A DNA stretch of 26,872 nucleotides from a virus. Within the stretch, counting starts at the first letter, position 1. Each line of letters opens with the position of its first letter. The notes beneath the pieces were generated by a model. The model saw nothing but the letters and a program-made list of their open reading frames with translations, had not been told where the DNA came from and searched no databases. Positions 3,340-14,706 of the stretch are shown here, piece by piece. A program made the position numbers and the translations under genes. The stretch is from the IMG/VR virus record IMGVR_UViG_3300032665_000163, positions 1 through 26,872 of that record. The stretch is one strand, 5' to 3'.

Positions 3340-3993
3340 TTATTTCCCTTCAATCTTGAGACCTTGTATCAAACGAAGAACTTCGCTCTTTACAAATCTC
3401 TGTGCTTTGTTGCCTTTAGCAGGGTCCTTAAACATATCTAGCAACTGCTGACCGCCACGATGATTCAGTAGGCCTTCATAAATTGCTGTTGGATATGCAT
3501 TAGGAGCACTTGGTTGAGCAACCACATCAACAGTGACTATTTCAAAGTCACTGACATGTCCGTTTGCGTCGTTGACATTTCCAGATCCACGACTGCTAAC
3601 ACCTAGTTTAACACCGGATTCTAACATTGTTTTTACTAATGTTCCCATCGGTGTTGGTAATATCTTTAGTTTTCCATAGCCTGCAGGGCCATCCATCCAC
3701 ATTTTTTCAATCATGTGACTTACACGATCCAAGTTGATCTTTAAATCATCTGGGTGATCTACTTCACCTAAAACTGAATGACCAGTTTTAATCTGTTCGT
3801 TGATAGTGTCTACTGCCTTGGCAATTTCGTTTACAGGATATACTCGCTCGTTGGCATTGCGAACTCCGCCCTCAATACAAATGCCTTTGAGGTACAAGTT
3901 CTTGCCAGAACCATCCGCGGCTTCCTCAGTCAGGATTTCTGCCCTGGCCTGAGTGAAGCTTAGATGTTCTTTAAGATATGTATAGCGAGCCAT
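3340..3993 (-). CDS. gp21: Prohead core protein protease (T4 gp21-like)
   Basis: 217 aa. This is the herpesvirus-assemblin-like serine protease that cleaves scaffold and capsid proteins during head maturation. The expected His is in LGEVDHP (H80), and the nucleophile serine is in GVSSRGSG (S133/S134). The following segments VSDFEIVTVDVVAQPSAP and YPTAIYE are family-typical. The N-terminus has the characteristic GVRNANERVYP segment. It lies between the acidic core protein and gp22, as in T4. Its stop nearly touches the gp22 start, suggesting translational coupling. Confidence 0.95.
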   Translation of the reverse strand: MARYTYLKEHLSFTQARAEILTEEAADGSGKNLYLKGICIEGGVRNANERVYPVNEIAKAVDTINEQIKTGHSVLGEVDHPDDLKINLDRVSHMIEKMWMDGPAGYGKLKILPTPMGTLVKTMLESGVKLGVSSRGSGNVNDANGHVSDFEIVTVDVVAQPSAPNAYPTAIYEGLLNHRGGQQLLDMFKDPAKGNKAQRFVKSEVLRLIQGLKIEGK

Positions 3994-4002
3994 ATCTACC
4001 TA

Positions 4003-4947
4003 TTAACCTCTTGGAAAAGGTGTCTTTGTATTAACACCGGCTGCTTGTGCAGTTACTGGCTTTGGTGCTGGTGCCAATTTACTACCGTCTTTAGCTGGAG
4101 TGTTTTTAAAAGTACCTGCGCCTGGCAAATTGCCTTCGCCCTTACTGTAAGCGTTTGATGGCTTCTTGTAAGCGGCTGTGCCGTCTGGGTTCTTCTCATC
4201 TGGGCTACCGCCTACTGGCTTACTTGCCATACCGGCTGCACCTGAATTAAATGCTGTTGTAGACTTTGTGTTTGTTCCAGCTGGCTCAGTAGTAACTGGC
4301 TTTGGTGCTGATGGCAAACTGATGTTTTCGCCCAATGGCATGTCAGCAAATTCAGCTGTGTCGTCCATTTCTAGCTCGTCGCCTTGCATATCGTGGTTGC
4401 CTACATCATTGCGCTCAGCATCAAATTCATCTTCTTCGCCGTGCTCGCCGCCCATAATAGCTTCAAATTCAGCCATTAATTCGTCTAACTTGTCTTCCAA
4501 GTCAACTACGCGATCTTCAATGTCGCCTTCTTCATCATGATCGTTTTCCATATCATGAGTCATTTCTTCGCCTTCTTCTTCAGCTTCGTCGTCAAACTCA
4601 GCATCATTTTCCATGGTCATACCTTCTTCGTCCATTTCGACGTCGTCAATAAGATCAGGAGCGGCATCAGAAGTCATATCTTCTTCAAGATCTTCTTCGT
4701 CATCTTCTTCTTCATCTTCGTCCAACTTGTTTTTCTTCTCGTCGTACTCGATGTCTTTAGCAACTTTTTTACCAGCTTTTTCAGCTTTGTCGTCGCGCTC
4801 AGCACTAGACTCTTCGTCTTCTTCTTCCATAAGACTCTCGTAGATTTCGCGTGATTTCTCAACAACGATATCATGGAAAAGCTCACGGGCTTTTTGTTCT
4901 TCATCATTAATCACATATTCGATTAATTGTTCAAATTTATTAGTCAT
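4003..4947 (-). CDS. Acidic prohead core protein (T4 gp67/gp68 position)
   Basis: 314 aa. The N-terminus (FEQLIEYVINDEEQKARELF, then VVEKSREIYESLMEEE) resembles the gp68-type prohead core proteins of T4-like phages. Residues of about 40-200 are extremely acidic (long Asp/Glu runs), a composition also known from T4 gp67. The C-terminal third is Pro/Ala/Gly/Thr-rich and disordered-looking. It carries two copies of a 16-residue unit (APKPVTTEPAGTNTKS at 214-229 and APKPVTAQAAGVNTKT at 294-309). The ATG at 4947 has a good AAGGAG site. By position, between gp20 and gp21, it should be an internal head/scaffold component. Whether it combines the roles of gp67 and gp68 is an inference. Confidence 0.8.
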   Translation of the reverse strand: MTNKFEQLIEYVINDEEQKARELFHDIVVEKSREIYESLMEEEDEESSAERDDKAEKAGKKVAKDIEYDEKKNKLDEDEEEDDEEDLEEDMTSDAAPDLIDDVEMDEEGMTMENDAEFDDEAEEEGEEMTHDMENDHDEEGDIEDRVVDLEDKLDELMAEFEAIMGGEHGEEDEFDAERNDVGNHDMQGDELEMDDTAEFADMPLGENISLPSAPKPVTTEPAGTNTKSTTAFNSGAAGMASKPVGGSPDEKNPDGTAAYKKPSNAYSKGEGNLPGAGTFKNTPAKDGSKLAPAPKPVTAQAAGVNTKTPFPRG

Positions 4948-7137: not shown

Positions 7138-9444
7138 TTAGCTAGTAGCTTTTAATTGTTGTTTCTGTACTGATAACTGTGCAGTCTGTACACGCAACAT
7201 TTCGGCAAATCCAGATTTTAATGCGCCGATCAGATTTTCATGCAACATGCTAGGATCATTGGCTGCCATTGCAGTTTCTCCGGTGGATGCTGTTTTGTCT
7301 TTGGGAACTGTTAGATCCGTGGGTTTACTTACACTGGAACTATAACTGCCTGTAGGTGCCGCTATTGGCGCTTGCGGTGTAGTAGATGCTGTTTGTACAG
7401 CTGGCCCACCCATTTTATTAAACATGTTCATCCAACCGGATGCATATTTTTCTGCTGTCAAACCGTTATTGGCTGCCAGTGCTTGAGCACTCATTTTGCC
7501 TTGTGCATTGCCTGTGTACCAGGTGTTGGCAACCGCAGACAAACTGCCATTATTTTTGGCTAGAATTTCTTCAACATTTTTGCGAGCAATTAAATCTTGT
7601 ATTTCTTTAGGAGCATCTTTGGCTTTTTTAAATTCAGCACCAATACTAAATTTCTTGGTTAAAGACTGCCATGTGCTGTCGATATATTGATATGCACCTG
7701 ATGCAGAACTGCCTTTGGCCTGTGCACCATAATTGCCGCCGGATTCTTTGGCACGAATTGTGGATAAAATCTTATCAACATCGCTGGCGTTTTGCATTCC
7801 TCTAGCACCGGTAGTGTACCCACCGCCGCCGGATTTGGCTGTGTCAAATGATGTGGCACCACCGCCTTTGGCCATTTCTTCTCTAATGGCTTTAGCTCTA
7901 GCTGTATCTCCCGCGGCAGTAGCATCTCTTAATTTTGATTCAAGTTGGTGTGTAGTTTTGCCTGCTAGGAAATCCAGTGGGTGTAGAATATCTTCTACTA
8001 GATCACCAATCGTTTCTATAGCACCAGCTAATATATTCATTGCGGCAGTTACTGGGCCTATACCTATCTCAACCAAACGATCCAATGCCTGTTGATAATG
8101 CTGTTGTTTAACCTGCATCAATGTCATGTTTTTTGCGGCAGCTTCAGCTTGATCATTTTGATAATGCGTAATTTTAGCATTGGCTTCTGTTTGATCCTTT
8201 AAGTTGGCCATTGCGGCAACTTCTGCACCAATACCTGCTACTGCATCTGCGGCTCCTACTGCTCTTAGTCGATCAAACTTTTGTTCATTGGCTACAGCTT
8301 CTTCTCTCATGCTGTTGGCAATGGTTATCTGATCGGCACCTTTTCTTATCAGTTCAGCAGTTCTAGGAAAACCAATTTGAAATTGACGGGCAGCCGGGCT
8401 AGTAACAAATCCAGTGGATATGTCACGCATACCTTGTGCTAGATTTTTACCCCCAGCTTTTAATACTTGAACACTGACATTTTGAATGTCTTCGTTTTGT
8501 TTTCGTAATTTTGAAGCCAATTCGTGGTCGCCGCGTATGTCTGCTTCTTTGGCTTGTCGTTCGCGCAGACGAATTGAAGCTCCAAATCGTTCTTCTGACA
8601 GAGCAGACTCTTTAAGTTTAGCCTGCTCATCGGCACTGGCGCCAGTAAGTTTAGTGAGTCTATCTTGCTGAACTAGATATTGTTCAGCACCTTCGGTCAG
8701 TTGCTCTTGAGTTTTATTTCCTAGCTCGCCTTGTGCCGCTTGTAGTCTTAGATAATTTGCTGTACCTTTGTTAAGACTATCAATAGTAAAGCCCATCATA
8801 CGCAAATGATCGCCAAAGGCACTTTCACGAACTGCCTGACTCATTTCAGCAAACTGCGCTGTACCGTCTGCTACCGTACCACCCAATACTGCTAGATTGT
8901 CAGCACTGTCTTTAACCAGTGCGCCTAAATTGCCAATTTGTTTTACTGTATAACCAAACTGTTGTAGGTTAGTAAAAACTTCATCTAAACCACCAGAGAT
9001 AGTTGTAGCACCAATGGCACTTAAATCTTGATAGCTTTTATATAGAGCATCTGCCTGCTTGCTTACTGCTTTACCATACTCTGCCAGCGACAGGGTAGCA
9101 AATTGTACAGTTTTAATTAATAATGAAAATTCTGGAAAAAGTACACTTAGATAATTGCCAAGTTTATTGATTCCAGCCGCTGTTGAATCAATGGCCTTGT
9201 TATATGCTTGTGCGCCAGATTCATTTCTCAAAGATCCCAGTGTGCCAGTAACAGCATTTACTGTATTTTTCATGGCATCTAACGACTTGTTAGCTTCGGC
9301 CATTTTTTTGCCAAACTCGCTATTATCAGTCTTTTTAGTTTTGACATCAACACCCAGGGCCGCGGCTAATCCTTTGTTAATTTCGATTAGTTCGCGAATG
9401 CTATCGTTCAGCGCATTAATTTGATCGTCATTGATATCAGCCAT
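7138..9444 (-). CDS. Tape-measure-like tail protein with C-terminal transglycosylase/lysozyme domain
   Basis: 768 aa from MADINDDQINALNDSIRELI. Residues of about 1-480 are Ala/Gln/Leu-rich, mostly helical, with short hydrophobic stretches (for example AAMNILAGAIETIGDLV), as in tail tape-measure proteins. From about residue 555 a lysozyme-like SLT domain begins: AKESGGNYGAQAKGSSASGA with predicted catalytic Glu567, then YQYIDSTWQSLTKKF and the NGSLSAVANTWYTGN segment. The role inferred is to set tail length and locally open peptidoglycan during DNA entry. The frame is open 17 codons further upstream, but that extension runs over the divergent gp26 start and lacks support; GGATAAG precedes the ATG at 9444. 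It is not alignable by eye to T4 gp29, so the tape-measure call rests on size, composition and the fused muramidase. Confidence 0.75.
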   Translation of the reverse strand: MADINDDQINALNDSIRELIEINKGLAAALGVDVKTKKTDNSEFGKKMAEANKSLDAMKNTVNAVTGTLGSLRNESGAQAYNKAIDSTAAGINKLGNYLSVLFPEFSLLIKTVQFATLSLAEYGKAVSKQADALYKSYQDLSAIGATTISGGLDEVFTNLQQFGYTVKQIGNLGALVKDSADNLAVLGGTVADGTAQFAEMSQAVRESAFGDHLRMMGFTIDSLNKGTANYLRLQAAQGELGNKTQEQLTEGAEQYLVQQDRLTKLTGASADEQAKLKESALSEERFGASIRLRERQAKEADIRGDHELASKLRKQNEDIQNVSVQVLKAGGKNLAQGMRDISTGFVTSPAARQFQIGFPRTAELIRKGADQITIANSMREEAVANEQKFDRLRAVGAADAVAGIGAEVAAMANLKDQTEANAKITHYQNDQAEAAAKNMTLMQVKQQHYQQALDRLVEIGIGPVTAAMNILAGAIETIGDLVEDILHPLDFLAGKTTHQLESKLRDATAAGDTARAKAIREEMAKGGGATSFDTAKSGGGGYTTGARGMQNASDVDKILSTIRAKESGGNYGAQAKGSSASGAYQYIDSTWQSLTKKFSIGAEFKKAKDAPKEIQDLIARKNVEEILAKNNGSLSAVANTWYTGNAQGKMSAQALAANNGLTAEKYASGWMNMFNKMGGPAVQTASTTPQAPIAAPTGSYSSSVSKPTDLTVPKDKTASTGETAMAANDPSMLHENLIGALKSGFAEMLRVQTAQLSVQKQQLKATS

Positions 9445-9470
9445 AATTATACTTATCCAAGGAAAAACCC

Positions 9471-10319
9471 ATGAATCCAAACAACCCTTTATCACAGTAT
9501 TTTAGACAGCCTGCGCTGTACATTCGACTACCTAGTCAGGGTAATTTTTATCCAGAAGGCACACTAGCGATGCCGCAGAACGGTGAATTGCCGGTGTTGC
9601 CCATGACGGCCATTGATGAAATTACCTATCGTACTCCAGATGCATTGTTCAACGGTCAGGCAGTGGTCAGTGTTATTGAAAGTTGTGTTCCTAATATCAA
9701 AGACGGCTGGTCAGTGCCTAGTATTGACATTGATGCTATTCTTGTTGGTATTAGAATTGCCAGTTACGGGCAAAATATGGATTTTTCTACCGAATGTCCA
9801 CAGTGTCAGACCATTACTGAACTGGCTTTGGATCTGCGTACTGTATTGGCTAAGATGAAAACTCCAGATTTTGAACACAGCATCAAGCATGGCGATATTG
9901 AAATTTTCTTTAAACCACTCAGCTACAAAGAAGTTAACAGCAACAATCAAGTACAGTTTGAAGAACAGCGAGCACTACAGATGTTGCCAGATCTCAATGA
10001 CAACGGCGAAGCTAACCAAGAAAAAGTTATGGCATTGAGTCATGCACTCAAAAAATTAACTGAAATTACTGTACGCACAATCGCCCAGAGTGTGTCATTG
10101 ATTAGAACTCCCAATGCCATGGTCAACCAGCCCGAATTTATACAAGAATTTTTTAAGAACTGCGATCGTTCGCTGTTTAACGATATCCGAGATCACTTGG
10201 TAAAAATTAAATCTGATTCAGAACTACAACCAGTTGATTTAACCTGTCCAGAGTGCCAATTCAAATACGAGCAACAGCTTACCTTGGATATGACAAGTTT
10301 TTTCGATCGCGCCTCCTGA
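9471..10319 (+). CDS. gp26: Baseplate hub protein (T4 gp26-like)
   Basis: 282 aa. It contains LPSQGNFYPEG, LPMTAIDEITYRTPDALFNG and VVSVIESCVPNIKDGWSVPS, which are typical of the T4 baseplate-hub gp26 family. Two CxxC pairs (ECPQC near residue 108 and TCPEC near 260) could bind a metal. It is longer than T4 gp26 (208 aa). The start has AAGGA nine bases upstream. It is divergent from the tape-measure-like gene, with only 26 bp between the two start codons, so both promoters must overlap the coding ends. Confidence 0.9.
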   Translation: MNPNNPLSQYFRQPALYIRLPSQGNFYPEGTLAMPQNGELPVLPMTAIDEITYRTPDALFNGQAVVSVIESCVPNIKDGWSVPSIDIDAILVGIRIASYGQNMDFSTECPQCQTITELALDLRTVLAKMKTPDFEHSIKHGDIEIFFKPLSYKEVNSNNQVQFEEQRALQMLPDLNDNGEANQEKVMALSHALKKLTEITVRTIAQSVSLIRTPNAMVNQPEFIQEFFKNCDRSLFNDIRDHLVKIKSDSELQPVDLTCPECQFKYEQQLTLDMTSFFDRAS

Positions 10320-10534: not shown

Positions 10535-11043
10535 TGTTAGACTTAGCCACTGTACAATCAGATATAGAGCACTGGATAGAAACTTTTGTAGAAGTTCCGC
10601 ACCCAGCACTAGGCGGCTGGGCTCCTTGTCCATATGCTCGCAAGGCCAGACTGGATCGTGACTTTACCGTTAGAGTAGGTGTCAATCCTTATTTTGATCT
10701 GGTCAATGTTGCCCGTGATGGTATAGGTGGCAAGAGTGTGTTAATTCTTGCCTACAATCCTGATGAGTTTTCTTATGAACAATTTGCAAGTGATGTTACG
10801 GCTGCCAACGAAGAAGCTTTACTGCCCAAAGGTTTCATAGCGTTGGAAGATCATCCTGGCGATCCTGAAATTGTCAACGGTGTTTCAATGAATCAAGGTA
10901 CCTATGCACTGGCACTGGTTCAAGATCTCAGCGATCTAAATGAAAAAGCCCAGCTTGTTGCCAAGAAGGGCTTTTATGACACTTGGCCTGCGGACTATTT
11001 AGAAGTCTTGTTCAAACACCGTAAAGATCCACGGGCAACTTGA
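10534..11043 (+). CDS. Conserved phage protein of unknown function
   Basis: 169 aa. The ATG overlaps the previous stop as TAATG, so translation is probably coupled to the gp26/small-gene pair. Notable segments are VPHPALGGWAPCPYARKARL near residues 21-40, SVLILAYNPDEFSYEQF, and ALVQDLSDLNEKAQLVAKKG. I recall similar 'NPALGxWAPCPYA' proteins in SAR11-type and cyanobacterial T4-like phages, without known function. No signal peptide or membrane segment is seen. The last 32 nt overlap the convergent arginyltransferase-like gene. Confidence 0.8.
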   Translation: MLDLATVQSDIEHWIETFVEVPHPALGGWAPCPYARKARLDRDFTVRVGVNPYFDLVNVARDGIGGKSVLILAYNPDEFSYEQFASDVTAANEEALLPKGFIALEDHPGDPEIVNGVSMNQGTYALALVQDLSDLNEKAQLVAKKGFYDTWPADYLEVLFKHRKDPRAT

Positions 11044-11692
11044 TCTTACTGTCACGCTTGCACAGCTGACGATATTGATCAGTGTCCTGACTCCACTCTT
11101 GCCCAGTCCACCACTCAAATCCTTGTATATCAGCCTTGTACAGACTGGATCGCTCGTAGCCGGGTCCTAGATAAACATATTCATAGCCTTCGCGTTTGGC
11201 CCAGGCTATTTCGTGCTCTAGACTACGACTGCCTAATCTGGTGTGTGGCTGACTATAATCCCAGGCAAACAAACTGGTTTCTATGGCCTGATCAGAATAG
11301 TGTCTTAGTTTGGCCCAGGCCACAAATACATCACTCTGGTAATAGGCCATAAAGCGATCCGACGGCAAGTGTTGTCCAATTTCAAAATACTTTTTGAACT
11401 TTTTATAGTAGCAGTAGGCAGTATAGATATGATCCATTTCTGTAAACTGAGCCGGCGTAGGATTTTCAATAATACAGGCATCTGGCAATAACTCATAATC
11501 GGTGTTGGCCACAGCAACACGAGTACTGCGACTTTGATACCATACTACTTTGTTGTTGCGTATCGATTGTAAAAATCCAAAGTCTAACGCGGCATTGTAT
11601 TCTTCTGGAGCTACATCAACTAACTCACAACCAAAGTGAAAAAACTCACCCTGTTCTTGGTGGCCAAAATTATGTGCGAACTGTATTTTCAT
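11012..11692 (-). CDS. Arginyl-tRNA-protein-transferase-like (ATE/Bpt C-terminal, GNAT fold) protein
   Basis: 226 aa. The C-terminal half (DVFVAWAKLRHYSDQAIETS, then RLGSRSLEHEIAWAKREGYE and YVYLGPGYERSSLYKADIQG) follows the pattern of the catalytic GNAT-like domain of bacterial Bpt and eukaryotic ATE1 aminoacyl-tRNA-protein transferases: a strand, a 'SLG...EI..A...G..Y.YLG' helix-strand, then '...YKA.F'. The N-terminal part has the 'EEYNAALDFGFLQS' element also expected in these enzymes, but the cysteine-rich segment typical of true ATEs is not obvious. If active it could add an amino acid to a protein N-terminus or to another substrate. No such phage function is established to my knowledge. 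It is divergent from the DUF6614 gene over a 37-bp AT-rich gap and converges on its left neighbour with a 32-nt overlap. Confidence 0.6.
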   Translation of the reverse strand: MKIQFAHNFGHQEQGEFFHFGCELVDVAPEEYNAALDFGFLQSIRNNKVVWYQSRSTRVAVANTDYELLPDACIIENPTPAQFTEMDHIYTAYCYYKKFKKYFEIGQHLPSDRFMAYYQSDVFVAWAKLRHYSDQAIETSLFAWDYSQPHTRLGSRSLEHEIAWAKREGYEYVYLGPGYERSSLYKADIQGFEWWTGQEWSQDTDQYRQLCKRDSKIKLPVDLYGV

Positions 11693-11729: not shown

Positions 11730-12065
11730 ATGGCAGACTTGTACACAATTTGGGCAAACAAAGAAGGCGACATCTCGGACTTGGACTGGGTCAACGGAAT
11801 GAAAAGTTTCTTTGATCATTTGATCGCCGAAGGCAAGATGGAAAGCTATCGCATCACTCGTTGCAAAATGGGCTTCCGTAGTATTACTGACATGCCCGAG
11901 TGGATGATCTTGATGGAGTTCCAAGACATGGCACAGATGGATTCGGCGTTTCGCCGCGTGGCTCCTTTAGAAGGCGAACTAGAAGTCAAACACAAAAGCT
12001 TCAATCAATTTGTTGCCGGTGACATACAACACGCACTGTTCCGTGATTGGCCTGATCAGTTCTAA
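11730..12065 (+). CDS. DUF6614-like small protein
   Basis: 111 aa. The pattern (DLYTIWANKEGDISDLDWVN, HLIAEGKMESYRITRCKMGF, MILMEFQDMAQMDSAFRRVA and a final ALFRDWPDQF) matches what I recall of the DUF6614 family, predicted alpha/beta-barrel (ferredoxin-like) proteins found in bacteria and phages. The function is unknown. The ATG at 11730 has AAGGA seven bases upstream. Its stop and the next start overlap in TAATG, so the two plus-strand genes form a pair. Confidence 0.8.
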   Translation: MADLYTIWANKEGDISDLDWVNGMKSFFDHLIAEGKMESYRITRCKMGFRSITDMPEWMILMEFQDMAQMDSAFRRVAPLEGELEVKHKSFNQFVAGDIQHALFRDWPDQF

Positions 12066-12967
12066 TGTATCCAAAGAATATTATTCTTTGTACCCAGGAT
12101 CAACCGGGCGAACGAGATTGGATCAGTCAGCTATTTCCAACTTATAAAAATGTGGAAACTAAATCTAGCGGCCAATGGCAGTTGCCTGCAGACTCTAATA
12201 CCATTTGGGAAACTCCTTATATCGATCACAGTTATCAAGATCTCCACAGGTTGTTAGACAATTCCTACTCAATCAAAACCGTTTTTACACAAGACTTGCC
12301 TTATGATTTTTTAATTGGCGACAATCTATGGACTGAAACCGAAGATTTAATTATACATCCTAGCATAAGATTTAGCACCAGTACTAGCGGCATATCACAG
12401 TATATGATGTTTACCATGACTAGGTGCGCCACGGTACTACAGGAAGAAATACTACAGAAAACTTATACAGCTATTGCTGATCATCATGCTGTACCCAGCA
12501 ACACTGATGTAGTACAGCAGTGCAGTGATCCAAACACTTTGATTTGCTTTATGTATCGTCAAGACTGGTGGCGTTGGGCCTGTAGCAAGCTGATTACAGC
12601 TAGAAACATGTTGGATGATCATACCGCACTGCACTATGATTCTCCAGTGAATTTTGATCAGCTGACTCCAATAGAAATTACCAAAAACGATTTAGATCAG
12701 CTAGAGTCTGTTCTTAAACGAACATTTAATCTTTGGTGCAATATCAGAATGATTTATCCTAATCATACAGTTGAACTGTATCGTTTTGAAACTAGTGTTT
12801 GTAACCAACAGGCAACACATCTAGCCATTCCTTACAGACACGAAGATTTTATTATCAACTATGAATCAGCAAAGCAATTATTTCTTTCTGACTATCTTAC
12901 TAAATGGCAAACAATAGAATCAAATGTTTTAAAACATTTATCTAAAATGGGTATTAGATTTAACTAA
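12065..12967 (+). CDS. Unknown 300-aa protein
   Basis: Not recognised with certainty. The N-terminus (MYPKNIILCTQDQPGERDWI) looks like the first beta strand of an alpha/beta fold. A middle region with FTMTRCATVLQEEIL followed by LICFMYRQDWWRWACSKLIT is faintly reminiscent of sulfotransferase-like phage proteins, but a clear PAPS-binding loop is not visible. It has several Trp and Cys residues and no signal or membrane segment. It is coupled to the DUF6614 gene by a 1-nt overlap. Its stop lies at the edge of the structured non-coding region that follows, which is on the other strand. Confidence 0.75.
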   Translation: MYPKNIILCTQDQPGERDWISQLFPTYKNVETKSSGQWQLPADSNTIWETPYIDHSYQDLHRLLDNSYSIKTVFTQDLPYDFLIGDNLWTETEDLIIHPSIRFSTSTSGISQYMMFTMTRCATVLQEEILQKTYTAIADHHAVPSNTDVVQQCSDPNTLICFMYRQDWWRWACSKLITARNMLDDHTALHYDSPVNFDQLTPIEITKNDLDQLESVLKRTFNLWCNIRMIYPNHTVELYRFETSVCNQQATHLAIPYRHEDFIINYESAKQLFLSDYLTKWQTIESNVLKHLSKMGIRFN

Positions 12968-12974
12968 CTGTTCG

Positions 12975-13375
12975 AGATCTCATTGAGATCTATGTCTTTC
13001 GCTAAAGCTCAGACATGATTGTTTTTCTTACGCATTATCCAGATTACGCGGTCACAATTCACCGTATAACGGTGAACTGACTCTACATTATCCGAGTGTA
13101 GCTGTCATCGATTCTAATGAGATTGTATGTACACCATACACGGAGGCGGTTGACCGGTACCCCCTACTCAAGCTTCACATATCAACGGAACCCTAGTAAC
13201 CCGAAATCGATCCAAGTCCTATAAGCACGGGTTGTATCTTTTTCATCAGAGCCCGAACCATTTGTTGCCTTAAGTTAGCAATTGCCTTTCACACGCAAGC
13301 TATTCCGGACCGGGGATCTAACCGTTCCTCCTTGCGAGTCGAGCTACCTCGACCAAACAGAGTGTGTTGTTGCCT
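12975..13375 (-). ncRNA. Candidate large structured non-coding RNA, unknown class
   Basis: No gene fits this roughly 410-nt gap, but it is dense in stems. 3' domain: an 8-bp long-range helix (13123-13116 with 12984-12977) encloses four consecutive hairpins at 13083-13101, 13051-13081, 13031-13050 and 12993-13015, almost back to back. Middle: hairpins at 13124-13140 (6 bp), 13142-13164 (nested, G-rich) and a 6-bp stem 13198-13203/13228-13233. 5' domain: CACAC/GTGTG (13290-13294 with 13362-13366), GCAAG/CTTGC (13295-13299 with 13331-13335) and a 6-bp hairpin at 13338-13353 form a three-way junction. The minus strand is favoured: in two stems the non-Watson-Crick position is G.U on minus but A.C on plus, and one internal loop gives tandem G.A only on minus. 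A 9-nt direct repeat TTGTTGCCT occurs at 13262-13270 and 13367-13375. The segment 13243-13213 recalls both a group I intron core and the 3' conserved region of RNase P RNA, but neither model completes. Confidence 0.55.
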
Positions 13376-13377
13376 GT

Positions 13378-13812
13378 CTAAGTTTGTATTTTGTTTTTTA
13401 TGTGACTACCATGTATACGGCAAACTATCTGCCCATTGTAGTAGTCGTCTGACTCTAGTACTCTATGATTAAATTGTTCTCTAGCTTCAATATAACTGCA
13501 TTCTGCCTTTGATTTGCAATAAAATAATATTTCTCTTGTGAAGTTGCCTGCGCCTAAGCGTTCTATGTCTTGATTAAGTTCTATGTTGCTGCCGTAATAA
13601 AGTTGCCAATCACTGTCTATTTTGCTACGAATTTTTTTGCGTTTTTTGTTGCCGTTCTTGAGTTTTACTGTTTTGTATGTTGTTTTACTAAATTTTGCTA
13701 ATTTTTTTCCAATGTATTTTCTACCGGTTTGATTATTTGTTATCAAATAAACAAACCCAACGCAATCTTCTGGTAATGCTTCTACAGTTTGATTTTCGAA
13801 TAGCCATGTCAT
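13378..13812 (-). CDS. GIY-YIG nuclease-domain protein, conserved in T4-like phages
   Basis: 144 aa. The core reads VGFVYLITN (residues 18-26) and KYIGKK (32-37), then a lysine-rich loop (about residues 45-63) and SDWQLYYGSN. The helix with the expected glutamate is ECSYIEAREQFNH, followed by DDYYNG and a short IHGSHIK tail. I recall very similar proteins ('MTWLF-E...DDYYN') in many marine T4-like phages, usually annotated as Seg-like or GIY-YIG endonucleases. Unlike the other GIY-YIG gene here it has no DNA-binding repeats, so homing activity is less certain. It starts 24 nt after the radical SAM stop. Its TAG stop directly abuts the structured RNA region, leaving both on the same transcript. 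Confidence 0.88.
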   Translation of the reverse strand: MTWLFENQTVEALPEDCVGFVYLITNNQTGRKYIGKKLAKFSKTTYKTVKLKNGNKKRKKIRSKIDSDWQLYYGSNIELNQDIERLGAGNFTREILFYCKSKAECSYIEAREQFNHRVLESDDYYNGQIVCRIHGSHIKNKIQT

Positions 13813-13836
13813 GGACTATTAGTTATCACACTACCA

Positions 13837-14706
13837 TCAGCTGAGTTGAATTTCTCGTTGCCACTGTGTTTCAAATGCCGTTTTACTTAGTTGTTTGCTA
13901 CAATTTCTAGCACAGACTGGATTTGGATTATCTGTACGCCAAGTTTCTTTTACTGTGGCCAAATCATCTGTGATAAAATCCGTTTGCCTACTGCCTAACC
14001 AACAGCAAGGACTAAGACGCCCCTGAGCATCCATGTACATACTTTTTTCAGCCAGGGCGTGACATTCAATTTTACCCGTAGTTTCAACCACAGGCAGTTG
14101 CCAATGTACCGGTGCTTCTAAACGATCCACCAACGGACGCTTACTAACTTTGGCACGGAACCACTTGAAACCCATTTCACGAGCTAGTTGTTCGCAGGCA
14201 TCTACTTGATGTTCGTTGTGACGATATACCAACATGTCCCAGTGTGCTTTACCCCCAGCGGCAATAAAAGATTCTACATTGCTCATCAGCTTGGCCCAAT
14301 TACTATTTTTACGATATATTGCATTAGTATCTTCTAGGCCGTCTATGCTGAATACACAGTAATCTTTGGGCTGGTTAAACAATTTGCCTAGCTCGTACCA
14401 CCAAAATGTGCTTTGTAAGGCACCATTTGAATTCATGCCTAGCACAATATCTGGATTTACTGTTCTAAAATAACGATAAATCTCTAAAGTATAGTAGCCA
14501 GCGGCAGGATCTCCATAGTCTCCGCACATGAACATTTTGTCCAGCCCTTTGATCACACGATCTGAAAATTTTCTCTGTATGTGTTCAATCTTAAGCTGAT
14601 GCTTGTTAGATTTATTGAAGTTAGGATCAGTTTCGCGAGCGCATAACGGGCAGGCCAACTGACAAACATCTGTGGGTTCTATGTGAAGTACTTTAACTCT
14701 ACGCAA
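13837..14706 (-). CDS. Radical SAM protein with SPASM-like C-terminal cysteines
   Basis: 289 aa. The radical SAM cluster motif is C15-x3-C19-x2-C22 (EPTDVCQLACPLCARE). CGDYGDP (61-67) takes the place of the SAM-binding GGE motif, and SIDGLEDTNAIYR (120-132) is typical of peptide-modifying members. The C-terminus has C215, C234-C235, C265 and C269, which could hold an auxiliary Fe-S cluster as in SPASM proteins. Such enzymes often modify peptides or proteins; the substrate here is unknown. No upstream ATG exists. The likely start is TTG at 14706, overlapping the end of gp46 by 8 nt, so expression is coupled to the recombination operon. No candidate precursor peptide was recognised next to it. 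Confidence 0.85.
   Translation of the reverse strand: MRRVKVLHIEPTDVCQLACPLCARETDPNFNKSNKHQLKIEHIQRKFSDRVIKGLDKMFMCGDYGDPAAGYYTLEIYRYFRTVNPDIVLGMNSNGALQSTFWWYELGKLFNQPKDYCVFSIDGLEDTNAIYRKNSNWAKLMSNVESFIAAGGKAHWDMLVYRHNEHQVDACEQLAREMGFKWFRAKVSKRPLVDRLEAPVHWQLPVVETTGKIECHALAEKSMYMDAQGRLSPCCWLGSRQTDFITDDLATVKETWRTDNPNPVCARNCSKQLSKTAFETQWQREIQLS

What the first reader, a model, noticed from the sequence alone, without database searches (positions are those of the whole stretch)
12968..13377. Roughly 400-nt elaborate structured RNA of unidentified class in an accessory block
This is the only gene-free stretch above 300 nt and it is full of consistent helices: a long-range 8-bp stem (12977-12984/13116-13123) closing a junction of four tightly packed hairpins, several further hairpins, and a 5' three-way junction. 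G.U wobbles and a tandem G.A internal loop are compatible only with the minus strand, so coding-strand coincidence is unlikely. Large ornate phage RNAs such as GOLLD and ROOL are known, but I cannot match this one to a class. It follows directly on a GIY-YIG gene and may share its transcript.
Basis: partly seen in the sequence, partly recalled or inferred. Interest (0 to 1): 0.85.

Follow-up and report, generated by a model that had tools for sequence, protein, structure and literature searches.

The report
Structured phage RNA with twin motifs
A gene-free stretch of a large uncultivated bacterial virus encodes a ~390-nucleotide RNA with an elaborate fold backed by evolution that matches no family in the RNA library searched, and carries two short copies of one motif that change together, as if both grip the same unknown partner.

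Summary
Window 13364-12975 (minus strand) encodes a structured noncoding RNA that matches no Rfam 15 family. Homologues occur in 221 of 264 fetched loci, all IMG/VR virus records, the window's own included; 119 representatives are below 93% identity. On 60 sequences a 14-helix model with a loop pseudoknot has 98.0% paired cells and 45 of 72 pairs with changes on both sides; 0 of 500 shuffles reach this, slid controls pair 37-48%. Its place is fixed: 30 of 30 portal loci with >=8 kb upstream hold it on the portal's strand, and 16 of 16 contigs of 124-347 kb hold it. The oddest feature: two segments (CUC-X and UCU-X) carry the same ~7-nt X, which changes in both together (22 same-branch changes at one position; >=7 nt shared in 149 of 152 sequences). 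I found no partner for X in the RNA or among the sites I could align in five phage contigs, so I infer an unidentified trans partner. Expression, function, host and habitat are not shown.

The parts
12975..13364 (-). structured noncoding RNA, first covarying helix to terminal hairpin (true ends not mapped)
   Evidence: 60-sequence alignment A1 and helix counts, mapped to the window
13290..13364 (-). 5' domain closed by P1 (13364-13362/13292-13290), with P3 (13336-13333/13297-13294) and P4 (13328-13326 and 13324-13322 / 13313-13311 and 13309-13307)
   Evidence: 100, 100 and 98-99% paired cells; 2 of 3, 3 of 4 and 6 of 6 pairs change on both sides; RNAalifold on the same alignment gives P3 and P4 but not P1
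13338..13353 (-). hairpin P2 (GUCGAG/CUCGAC)
   Evidence: read from the sequence; homologues carry different hairpins here that the alignment does not register, so it was not counted
13266..13280 (-). possible hairpin P5 (UGCU/GGCA, loop AACUUAA) within the strongly conserved GGCAAUUGCUAACUUAAGGCAAC
   Evidence: 1 of 4 pairs with changes on both sides; RNAalifold pairs these columns with 223-237 instead, so P5 is unsettled
13228..13255 (-). P6 (CGGG/CCCG) with the strongly conserved loop motif CUCUG..GAAAAAGAUAC
   Evidence: 3 of 4 pairs change on both sides
13194..13221 (-). P7 hairpin whose loop forms pseudoknot PK1
   Evidence: 5 of 10 pairs change on both sides, 99.2% paired
13107..13114 (-). 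3' strand of pseudoknot PK1 (GAAUCGAU), pairs with the P7 loop 13211-13205 (AUCGAUU)
   Evidence: 6 of 8 pairs change on both sides, 92.8% paired
13118..13170 (-). junction: P8 (13170-13167/13121-13118), P9 (13164-13160/13146-13142) with invariant GGGGUACCGGUCAACCGCC, P10 (13139-13136/13128-13125)
   Evidence: P8: U-A 32, A-U 26 at pair 239-344, other three pairs invariant; P10: 4 of 4 pairs change on both sides. RNAalifold pairs GAGU with the invariant ACUC before X1 instead of P8
13086..13093 (-). twin segment X1, GGAUAAUG, preceded by ACUC
   Evidence: changes in concert with X2; folds as a hairpin loop in the window, but a flanking stem is barely commoner than with shuffled flanks
13058..13076 (-). 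long hairpin P12 (UUCACCGU/ACGGUGAA) between the twin segments
   Evidence: 98.8% paired
13033..13040 (-). twin segment X2, GGAUAAUG, preceded by AUCU
   Evidence: changes in concert with X1; loop placement as weak as for X1
12992..13016 (-). hairpin P14 with tandem G.A internal loop (UGAG..GCGAAA)
   Evidence: 6 of 6 pairs change on both sides, 97.5% paired
12975..12991 (-). terminal hairpin P15
   Evidence: 5 of 6 pairs change on both sides
13378..13812 (-). SegE-type GIY-YIG endonuclease gene, upstream neighbour on the same strand
   Evidence: PF19835 E 8.5e-33; immediately upstream in 73 of 106 loci
12065..12967 (+). convergent 300-aa ORF of unknown function
   Evidence: no Pfam or PHROG family at E<=0.001

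Best explanation
SHOWN by comparison: window 13364-12975 (minus) encodes a member of a structured noncoding RNA family carried, one copy per contig in the 16 large contigs examined, by large phages, many of them T4-like by their portal. The RNA has about 14 helices, one loop pseudoknot, invariant stretches, and two segments that share the same short sequence X and change it together. INFERRED: the RNA is a stable trans-acting scaffold, made with or processed from the transcript that runs through the upstream gene, that presents X twice. The two segments bind two copies, or a symmetric dimer, of one partner that lies outside the RNA. I think the likeliest partner is a host-encoded nucleic acid or an RNA-binding protein, so that the RNA acts as a bivalent decoy or antisense regulator. 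My estimates: structured RNA family 0.97; both segments contact one shared partner 0.75; bivalent decoy or antisense regulator 0.35.
For: Homologues and fixed place: 221 of 264 loci; 30 of 30 portal loci with >=8 kb upstream (some are near-identical contigs); 16 of 16 large contigs. Structure: 98.0% of 4248 cells paired, 45 of 72 pairs and 428 cells with changes on both sides against shuffled means of 25.1 and 110.7, 0 of 500 shuffles; slides 37-48% paired. A separate home-made tree-simulated null on 119 sequences gave 13 significant pairs at E<0.05, 10 of them standard pairs in >80% of sequences. Not coding: longest stop-free sense stretch, median 43 codons of ~149. Twin segments: at one position A/A 62, G/G 56, mixed 1 of 119, with 22 and 23 changes of which 22 on the same branches; at the other 117 of 119 identical, 8 and 10 changes of which 7 on the same branches. 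At least 7 nt shared in 149 of 152 real sequences against 71 of 270 scorable chimeras. L134 and L181, not in covariance model R1, score E 3e-11 and 1e-11 and keep twins with new X. No consistent complement of X in the RNA; among 9-36 alignable own-X sites per contig pair, only the two segments change to the other phage's X.
Against: No expression data. Single-sequence folding is barely better than shuffled. RNAalifold on A1 differs from my model: it lacks P1, P5 and P8, and cannot show PK1. I chose the helices on the alignment they were counted on. That X1 and X2 sit in hairpin loops is not established: a flanking stem of >=4 pairs occurs in 91 of 119 (76%; shuffled flanks 64%) and 64 of 119 (54%; shuffled 49%). 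No promoter was recognised: 1 promoter-like site in 12900-13900 against 3.1 expected. The partner of X was not found; partners shorter than 7 nt, in unalignable phage DNA, or in the host were not tested. G-U-tolerant complements of X of 8 nt occur in the tmRNA of 2 of 5 contigs and in a tRNA of another; I take these as chance but did not test it. X varies widely (RGAUAAU to UCAGAAA), so any protein partner would have to co-evolve often.
Confidence: 0.45

Rival explanations
1. An ornate RNA that works by self-assembly, like ROOL and GOLLD: the twin segments are symmetric contacts that join copies into a homo-oligomer.
For: Complexity, pseudoknot, phage origin and lack of a known protein resemble ROOL and GOLLD, which form RNA-only cages with kissing loops (passages of PMC12286853).
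Against: No consistently placed complement of X inside the RNA, so plain kissing of X between copies is unlikely. RNA and tRNA genes lie apart in the five contigs checked, one of which has no tRNA gene by ARAGORN.
Confidence: 0.2
2. Paired binding sites for a dimeric phage or host RNA-binding protein; the RNA is a protein scaffold or a sponge.
For: Two copies of one site around a long conserved hairpin, changing together.
Against: X is very variable and differs between 89%-identical RNAs (window and L023), which would need frequent specificity changes in the protein.
Confidence: 0.25
3. A cis-acting 3' UTR or terminator of the SbcC/radical SAM/GIY-YIG gene row.
For: It starts close after the GIY-YIG stop codon in 73 of 106 loci and ends with two hairpins between convergent genes.
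Against: A terminator does not need ~390 nt with invariant stretches and a pseudoknot; 27 of 106 loci have other genes between and 6 of 106 lack GIY-YIG; L088 and L116 have mostly different neighbours.
Confidence: 0.08
4. A self-splicing intron or ribozyme remnant beside a homing endonuclease gene.
For: A GIY-YIG endonuclease gene is adjacent.
Against: No Rfam intron or ribozyme at E<=10 in 12700-13600; it interrupts no gene; one copy at a conserved place.
Confidence: 0.02

Closest known systems
ROOL RNA
   Same: Large, ornate, pseudoknotted, phage-borne RNA of unknown function (PMC12286853, passages)
   Different: No Rfam match; ~390 nt against 659 nt for the example named there; RNA apart from tRNA genes in the contigs checked; twin segments changing in concert
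GOLLD RNA
   Same: Large ornate phage RNA of unknown function (same passages)
   Different: No Rfam match; many GOLLD members exceed 800 nt and they are often near tRNA islands
EGFOA RNA (RF02955)
   Same: A sub-threshold match (29 bits, cutoff 37.7) lies in the same gene interval of Sinorhizobium phage Phosso
   Different: No match in this RNA at E<=10; no Phosso match to my profile or model R1
bridge RNA of IS110 elements (recalled, no call)
   Same: Two parts of one RNA that share a sequence
   Different: No recombinase was identified beside it and no target is known; a resemblance only
HEARO/omega RNA (recalled, no call)
   Same: Structured RNA next to a nuclease gene
   Different: The nuclease is a 144-aa GIY-YIG, absent in 6 of 106 loci; no guide-target relation shown

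Membership tests
Any Rfam 15 family, including GOLLD, ROOL, OLE, group I intron, RNase P, tmRNA | covariance-model score at or above the curated cut-off | tested here: not met
   whole window, 0 matches; 12700-13600 at E<=10, 3 chance matches, best E 1.2
tmRNA / tRNA | ARAGORN gene call | tested here: not met
   0 genes in the window
large ornate phage RNA (general kind) | more than 300 nt, many helices supported by covariation | tested here: met
   14 helices, 45 of 72 pairs with changes on both sides
large ornate phage RNA (general kind) | pseudoknot or tertiary contacts supported by covariation | tested here: met
   PK1, 6 of 8 pairs
ROOL/GOLLD | often near tRNA islands | tested here: not met
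   5 contigs checked: in 4 the RNA and the tRNA genes found lie on different 20-kb pieces, 1 has no tRNA gene by ARAGORN; 'often' is not 'always', so this is weak
ROOL/GOLLD/OLE | RNA-only homo-oligomer | not testable with these tools
   needs biophysics
group I/II intron | intron model match and an interrupted gene | tested here: not met
   no match at E<=10; lies between convergent genes
protein-coding gene | conserved open reading frame | tested here: not met
   longest stop-free stretch over 119 sequences: sense median 43 (max 86), antisense median 60 (max 122) of ~149 codons; single-base indels among homologues

The most novel reading that the evidence does not exclude
A guide-like phage RNA: a conserved scaffold that displays one short, changeable recognition sequence twice, so that one molecule grips two copies of the same target (host RNA or DNA) and brings them together or titrates them; the frequent concerted changes of X would follow the host. 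That would be a bivalent guide of a kind I know of in no described family.
Probability: 0.15. Interest if true: 0.92.

Novelty: new variant of a known kind. Interest (0 to 1): 0.74.

Why it matters
Few large structured phage RNAs are known and their functions are open. This adds a family with 119 representatives below 93% identity, a covariation-supported fold with a pseudoknot, and a built-in clue to function: two segments that must carry the same sequence. That clue turns 'unknown function' into a search for one defined partner. The family is absent from Rfam 15 and was not found by a nucleotide search of 50,697 phage records, so as far as those collections go it is known only from uncultivated phages.

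Tried and rejected
(2) Folding energy as proof: z -1.87. (3) A GIY-YIG-specific partner RNA: the RNA persists without the gene in 6 of 106 loci. (4) Complement of X inside the RNA: no consistent place; the two most frequent columns held >=6 nt in 39 and 37 of 119 sequences, apparently in the A+U-rich P7 loop that already pairs in PK1. (5) Own X enriched in flanks or in five contigs: no. (6) Another phage site changing with X: none but the two segments among the 9-36 alignable sites per contig pair. (7) Complement of X in phage tRNA/tmRNA: scattered, up to 8 nt with G-U, not followed. (8) Block recombination as the cause of the concerted change: judged unlikely, since columns 277 and 332 score 148 with each other and at most 29 with any other column. 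(9) Cellular genomes: one GTDB scan with an 18-mer gave 5 loci, none matching the profile; four of the five matched model R1 only over 17 nt. The 18-mer is in 35 of 35 portal-derived full copies, but L205 has a variant, so a more divergent cellular copy is not excluded. (10) Cultured jumbo phages: 0 of 8 records with R1 at E<=10, with stricter filters. PA5oct has a weak match in the syntenic interval: 14.4 bits, E 0.27 with default filters; unfiltered over four loci 10.4 bits, E 0.83, second behind an unrelated place.

Limits: both pattern scans stopped at 120 stretches, so the family is larger than counted. For A1 I dropped 8 of the 119 representatives (divergent or insert-bearing) before a cut at 82% identity left 60. 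The gene context uses the 106 loci with at least 800 nt on both sides. In one search, 30 of 300 chimeras could not be scored; the one real sequence without a twin there, L066, was cut by my script and does carry both copies. MAFFT Q-INS-i could not run. My covariation null imitates R-scape's; R-scape itself was not run.

Full report
What is there. The window is a 26,872-base virus record. Its genes are those of a T4-like myovirus: major head protein, protease and portal on the minus strand, baseplate-type genes on the plus strand. The finding lies between two convergent ORFs, a 300-aa plus-strand ORF ending at 12967 and a SegE-type GIY-YIG gene ending at 13378. Rfam 15 gives nothing at gathering score in the window and three chance hits at E<=10 around the region. 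ARAGORN finds no tRNA or tmRNA. A lone fold is unconvincing: minus strand z -1.87, plus strand z -0.29.

Homologues. The 300-aa neighbour brought only near-identical contigs. The portal protein brought 80 loci, the best of at least 598 relatives. Searches with the minus-strand sequence found homologues at about 76-90% identity, on the portal's strand in these loci. A profile from 31 sequences then matched 221 of 264 loci at E<=1e-3; the 43 without it are 38 portal loci, each with less than 8 kb upstream, and 5 GTDB loci. Some contigs are present twice among the loci. There are 176 full copies, 130 distinct, and 119 representatives below 93% identity, gaps counted. In 50,697 phage records blastn found nothing better than 27-base matches at E 0.5. 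One scan of GTDB genomes with an 18-mer gave five loci that do not match the profile.

Place. Of 30 portal loci with at least 8 kb upstream, 30 hold the RNA; of 11 with 5-8 kb, 10 do. Over 42 portal loci the RNA ends 3.1-8.5 kb before the portal; some loci are near-identical contigs. Sixteen of 16 contigs of 124-347 kb hold it. Fourteen have one match; in the other two the second match lies inside or right beside the first, so I count one copy each. The usual gene order is radical SAM or SbcC, GIY-YIG, RNA, then convergent genes. In 106 loci GIY-YIG is immediately upstream in 73, upstream with other genes between in 27, and absent in 6.

Structure. On 60 sequences below 82% pairwise identity I tested 72 pairs in 14 helices: 98.0% of cells form standard pairs, 45 pairs and 428 cells have changes on both sides. 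Shuffles average 87.1%, 25.1 and 110.7, none of 500 reaching the observed values; sliding partners by 1-3 columns gives 37-48% paired. The tool warns that related sequences can exceed shuffles and that a structure derived from the same data beats the slides, and I did choose the helices on this alignment. So I also rely on a second statistic: a home-made tree-simulated null over 119 sequences gave 13 significant pairs, 10 of them standard pairs in over 80% of sequences, 9 of those in the RNAalifold fold. The most unexpected helix is a pseudoknot: the loop of P7 pairs with a segment about 90 nt downstream, 6 of 8 pairs changing on both sides. RNAalifold on A1 agrees on P3, P4, P6, P7, P9, P10, P12, P14 and P15, with 40 of its 79 pairs changing on both sides, but it omits P1, P5 and P8 and pairs P5's and P8's stretches otherwise. 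P8 keeps one covarying pair (U-A 32, A-U 26); P5 is unsettled. GGGGUACCGGUCAACCGCC is invariant in all 60 rows, so pairings inside it are untested. The sense strand is open for a median of only 43 codons of about 149.

Twin segments. Besides standard pairs, the test found two pairs of columns that hold the same letter: 277/332 and 281/336 (a third non-standard pair, 20/37, lies in the unregistered P2 hairpin). They sit in two segments that read ACUC-X and AUCU-X, where X is usually RGAURAU. The first position is G/G in 56, A/A in 62 and mixed in 1 of 119. On a tree made without these columns there are 22 and 23 changes, 22 on the same branches; at the second position 8 and 10, 7 on the same branches. 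All 119 representatives have both copies. Of 152 distinct sequences spanning the region, 149 share at least 7 nt and 151 at least 6; the remaining one, L066, was cut by my script and carries both copies. Chimeras of two phages reach 7 nt in 71 of 270. Rare types change X as a whole: ACAUGAAG, AGAUCAAG, ACGAAAU, AUGAAG, UCAGAAA. The divergent members L088, L116, L134 and L181 keep the twins; L088 and L116 lie among mostly different genes, and L134 and L181 were not in the covariance model that scores them at E 3e-11 and 1e-11. In the window both segments fold into hairpin loops, but over 119 sequences a flanking stem is hardly commoner than with shuffled flanks, so 'loop' is not established.

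What X binds. X has no consistent complement in the RNA. It is not enriched in flanks or in five contigs. Among own-X sites alignable between contigs with different X, 9-36 per pair, only the two segments change to the other phage's X. So the partner is probably outside the phage sequence examined, or a protein. This is inference. Targets shorter than 7 nt, unalignable phage DNA and the host were not tested.

Relatives in cultured phages. The nearest portals belong to PA5oct-like, Phosso and Atu_ph07 phages. Model R1 finds nothing in 8 cultured records under strict filters. The same gene interval in Phosso holds an 871-nt stretch that folds strongly on both strands (z -7.5 and -5.9, 20 shuffles each) with a sub-threshold EGFOA match. 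In PA5oct, 4300-4700 of L265 folds strongly (z -7.3; with long perfect hairpins that may be terminators), 3900-4320 does not (z -0.88). A PA5oct motif, CUCUG..GAAAAAGA, is otherwise nearly confined to this family: of 92 hits in 4.2 Mb of partly redundant loci, 87 lie inside mapped copies, three are copies in newly fetched pieces, one is elsewhere in L315, and one is PA5oct's. But the model score there is not significant. I report a possible RNA hotspot, not a homologue.

Literature. Search listings for GOLLD and ROOL with phage, jumbo phage and structured RNA, PA5oct, huge phage RNA, and candidate-RNA lists showed no title or abstract start describing this RNA; only the top of each list was shown, and only open-licence PMC papers are held. 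Of PMC12286853 I saw passages; the 2017 candidate-list paper I asked for was not held.

Verdict. A real structured RNA family of large phages, new to Rfam 15; ordinary elements are excluded as far as Rfam and the gene context can tell. The function is unknown, but the concerted twin segments give a concrete, testable reading.

Noticed in passing
L280:15238-15678 (-), L300:14202-14640, L314:17949-18305 (-), L322:10821-11310, L339:11362-11767: All 5 large phage contigs examined have an ARAGORN tmRNA, marked '*', which I recall means permuted; Rfam confirms a permuted tmRNA (RF04321) at L280, the only one of these pieces scanned. Four predicted tags are 27-29 residues, one is 13.
   Followed up: partly
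L275:1445-1534 (-) and L310:6837-6926 (-): Rfam 'freshwater-2' RNA (RF02980) occurs in two of these phages.
   Followed up: no
L266:3180-4050: Sinorhizobium phage Phosso has an 871-nt gene-free, strongly folding stretch (z -7.5 on +, -5.9 on -) with a sub-threshold EGFOA match, in the syntenic interval.
   Followed up: partly
L265:3800-4960: PA5oct's syntenic interval is gene-poor; 4300-4700 folds with z -7.3 and 4134 carries CUCUGGUAGAAAAAGA, like the P6 motif of this RNA; homology not significant.
   Followed up: partly
window 13378-13812: The GIY-YIG gene matches phrog_447, described as 'NAD synthetase', and several phage records carry that name; the Pfam match is SegE GIY-YIG, so the name looks like a propagated misannotation.
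   Followed up: no
window 11012-11692: ORF with a weak match to the arginyl-tRNA-protein transferase C-terminal domain (24.3 bits, cutoff 25); its cluster C3 recurs near the RNA in other loci.
   Followed up: no
window 7138-9495: The 785-aa ORF before the portal has no PHROG match; an ORF of similar length precedes the portal in PA5oct, Phosso, Atu_ph07 and XbC2, homology not tested.
   Followed up: no
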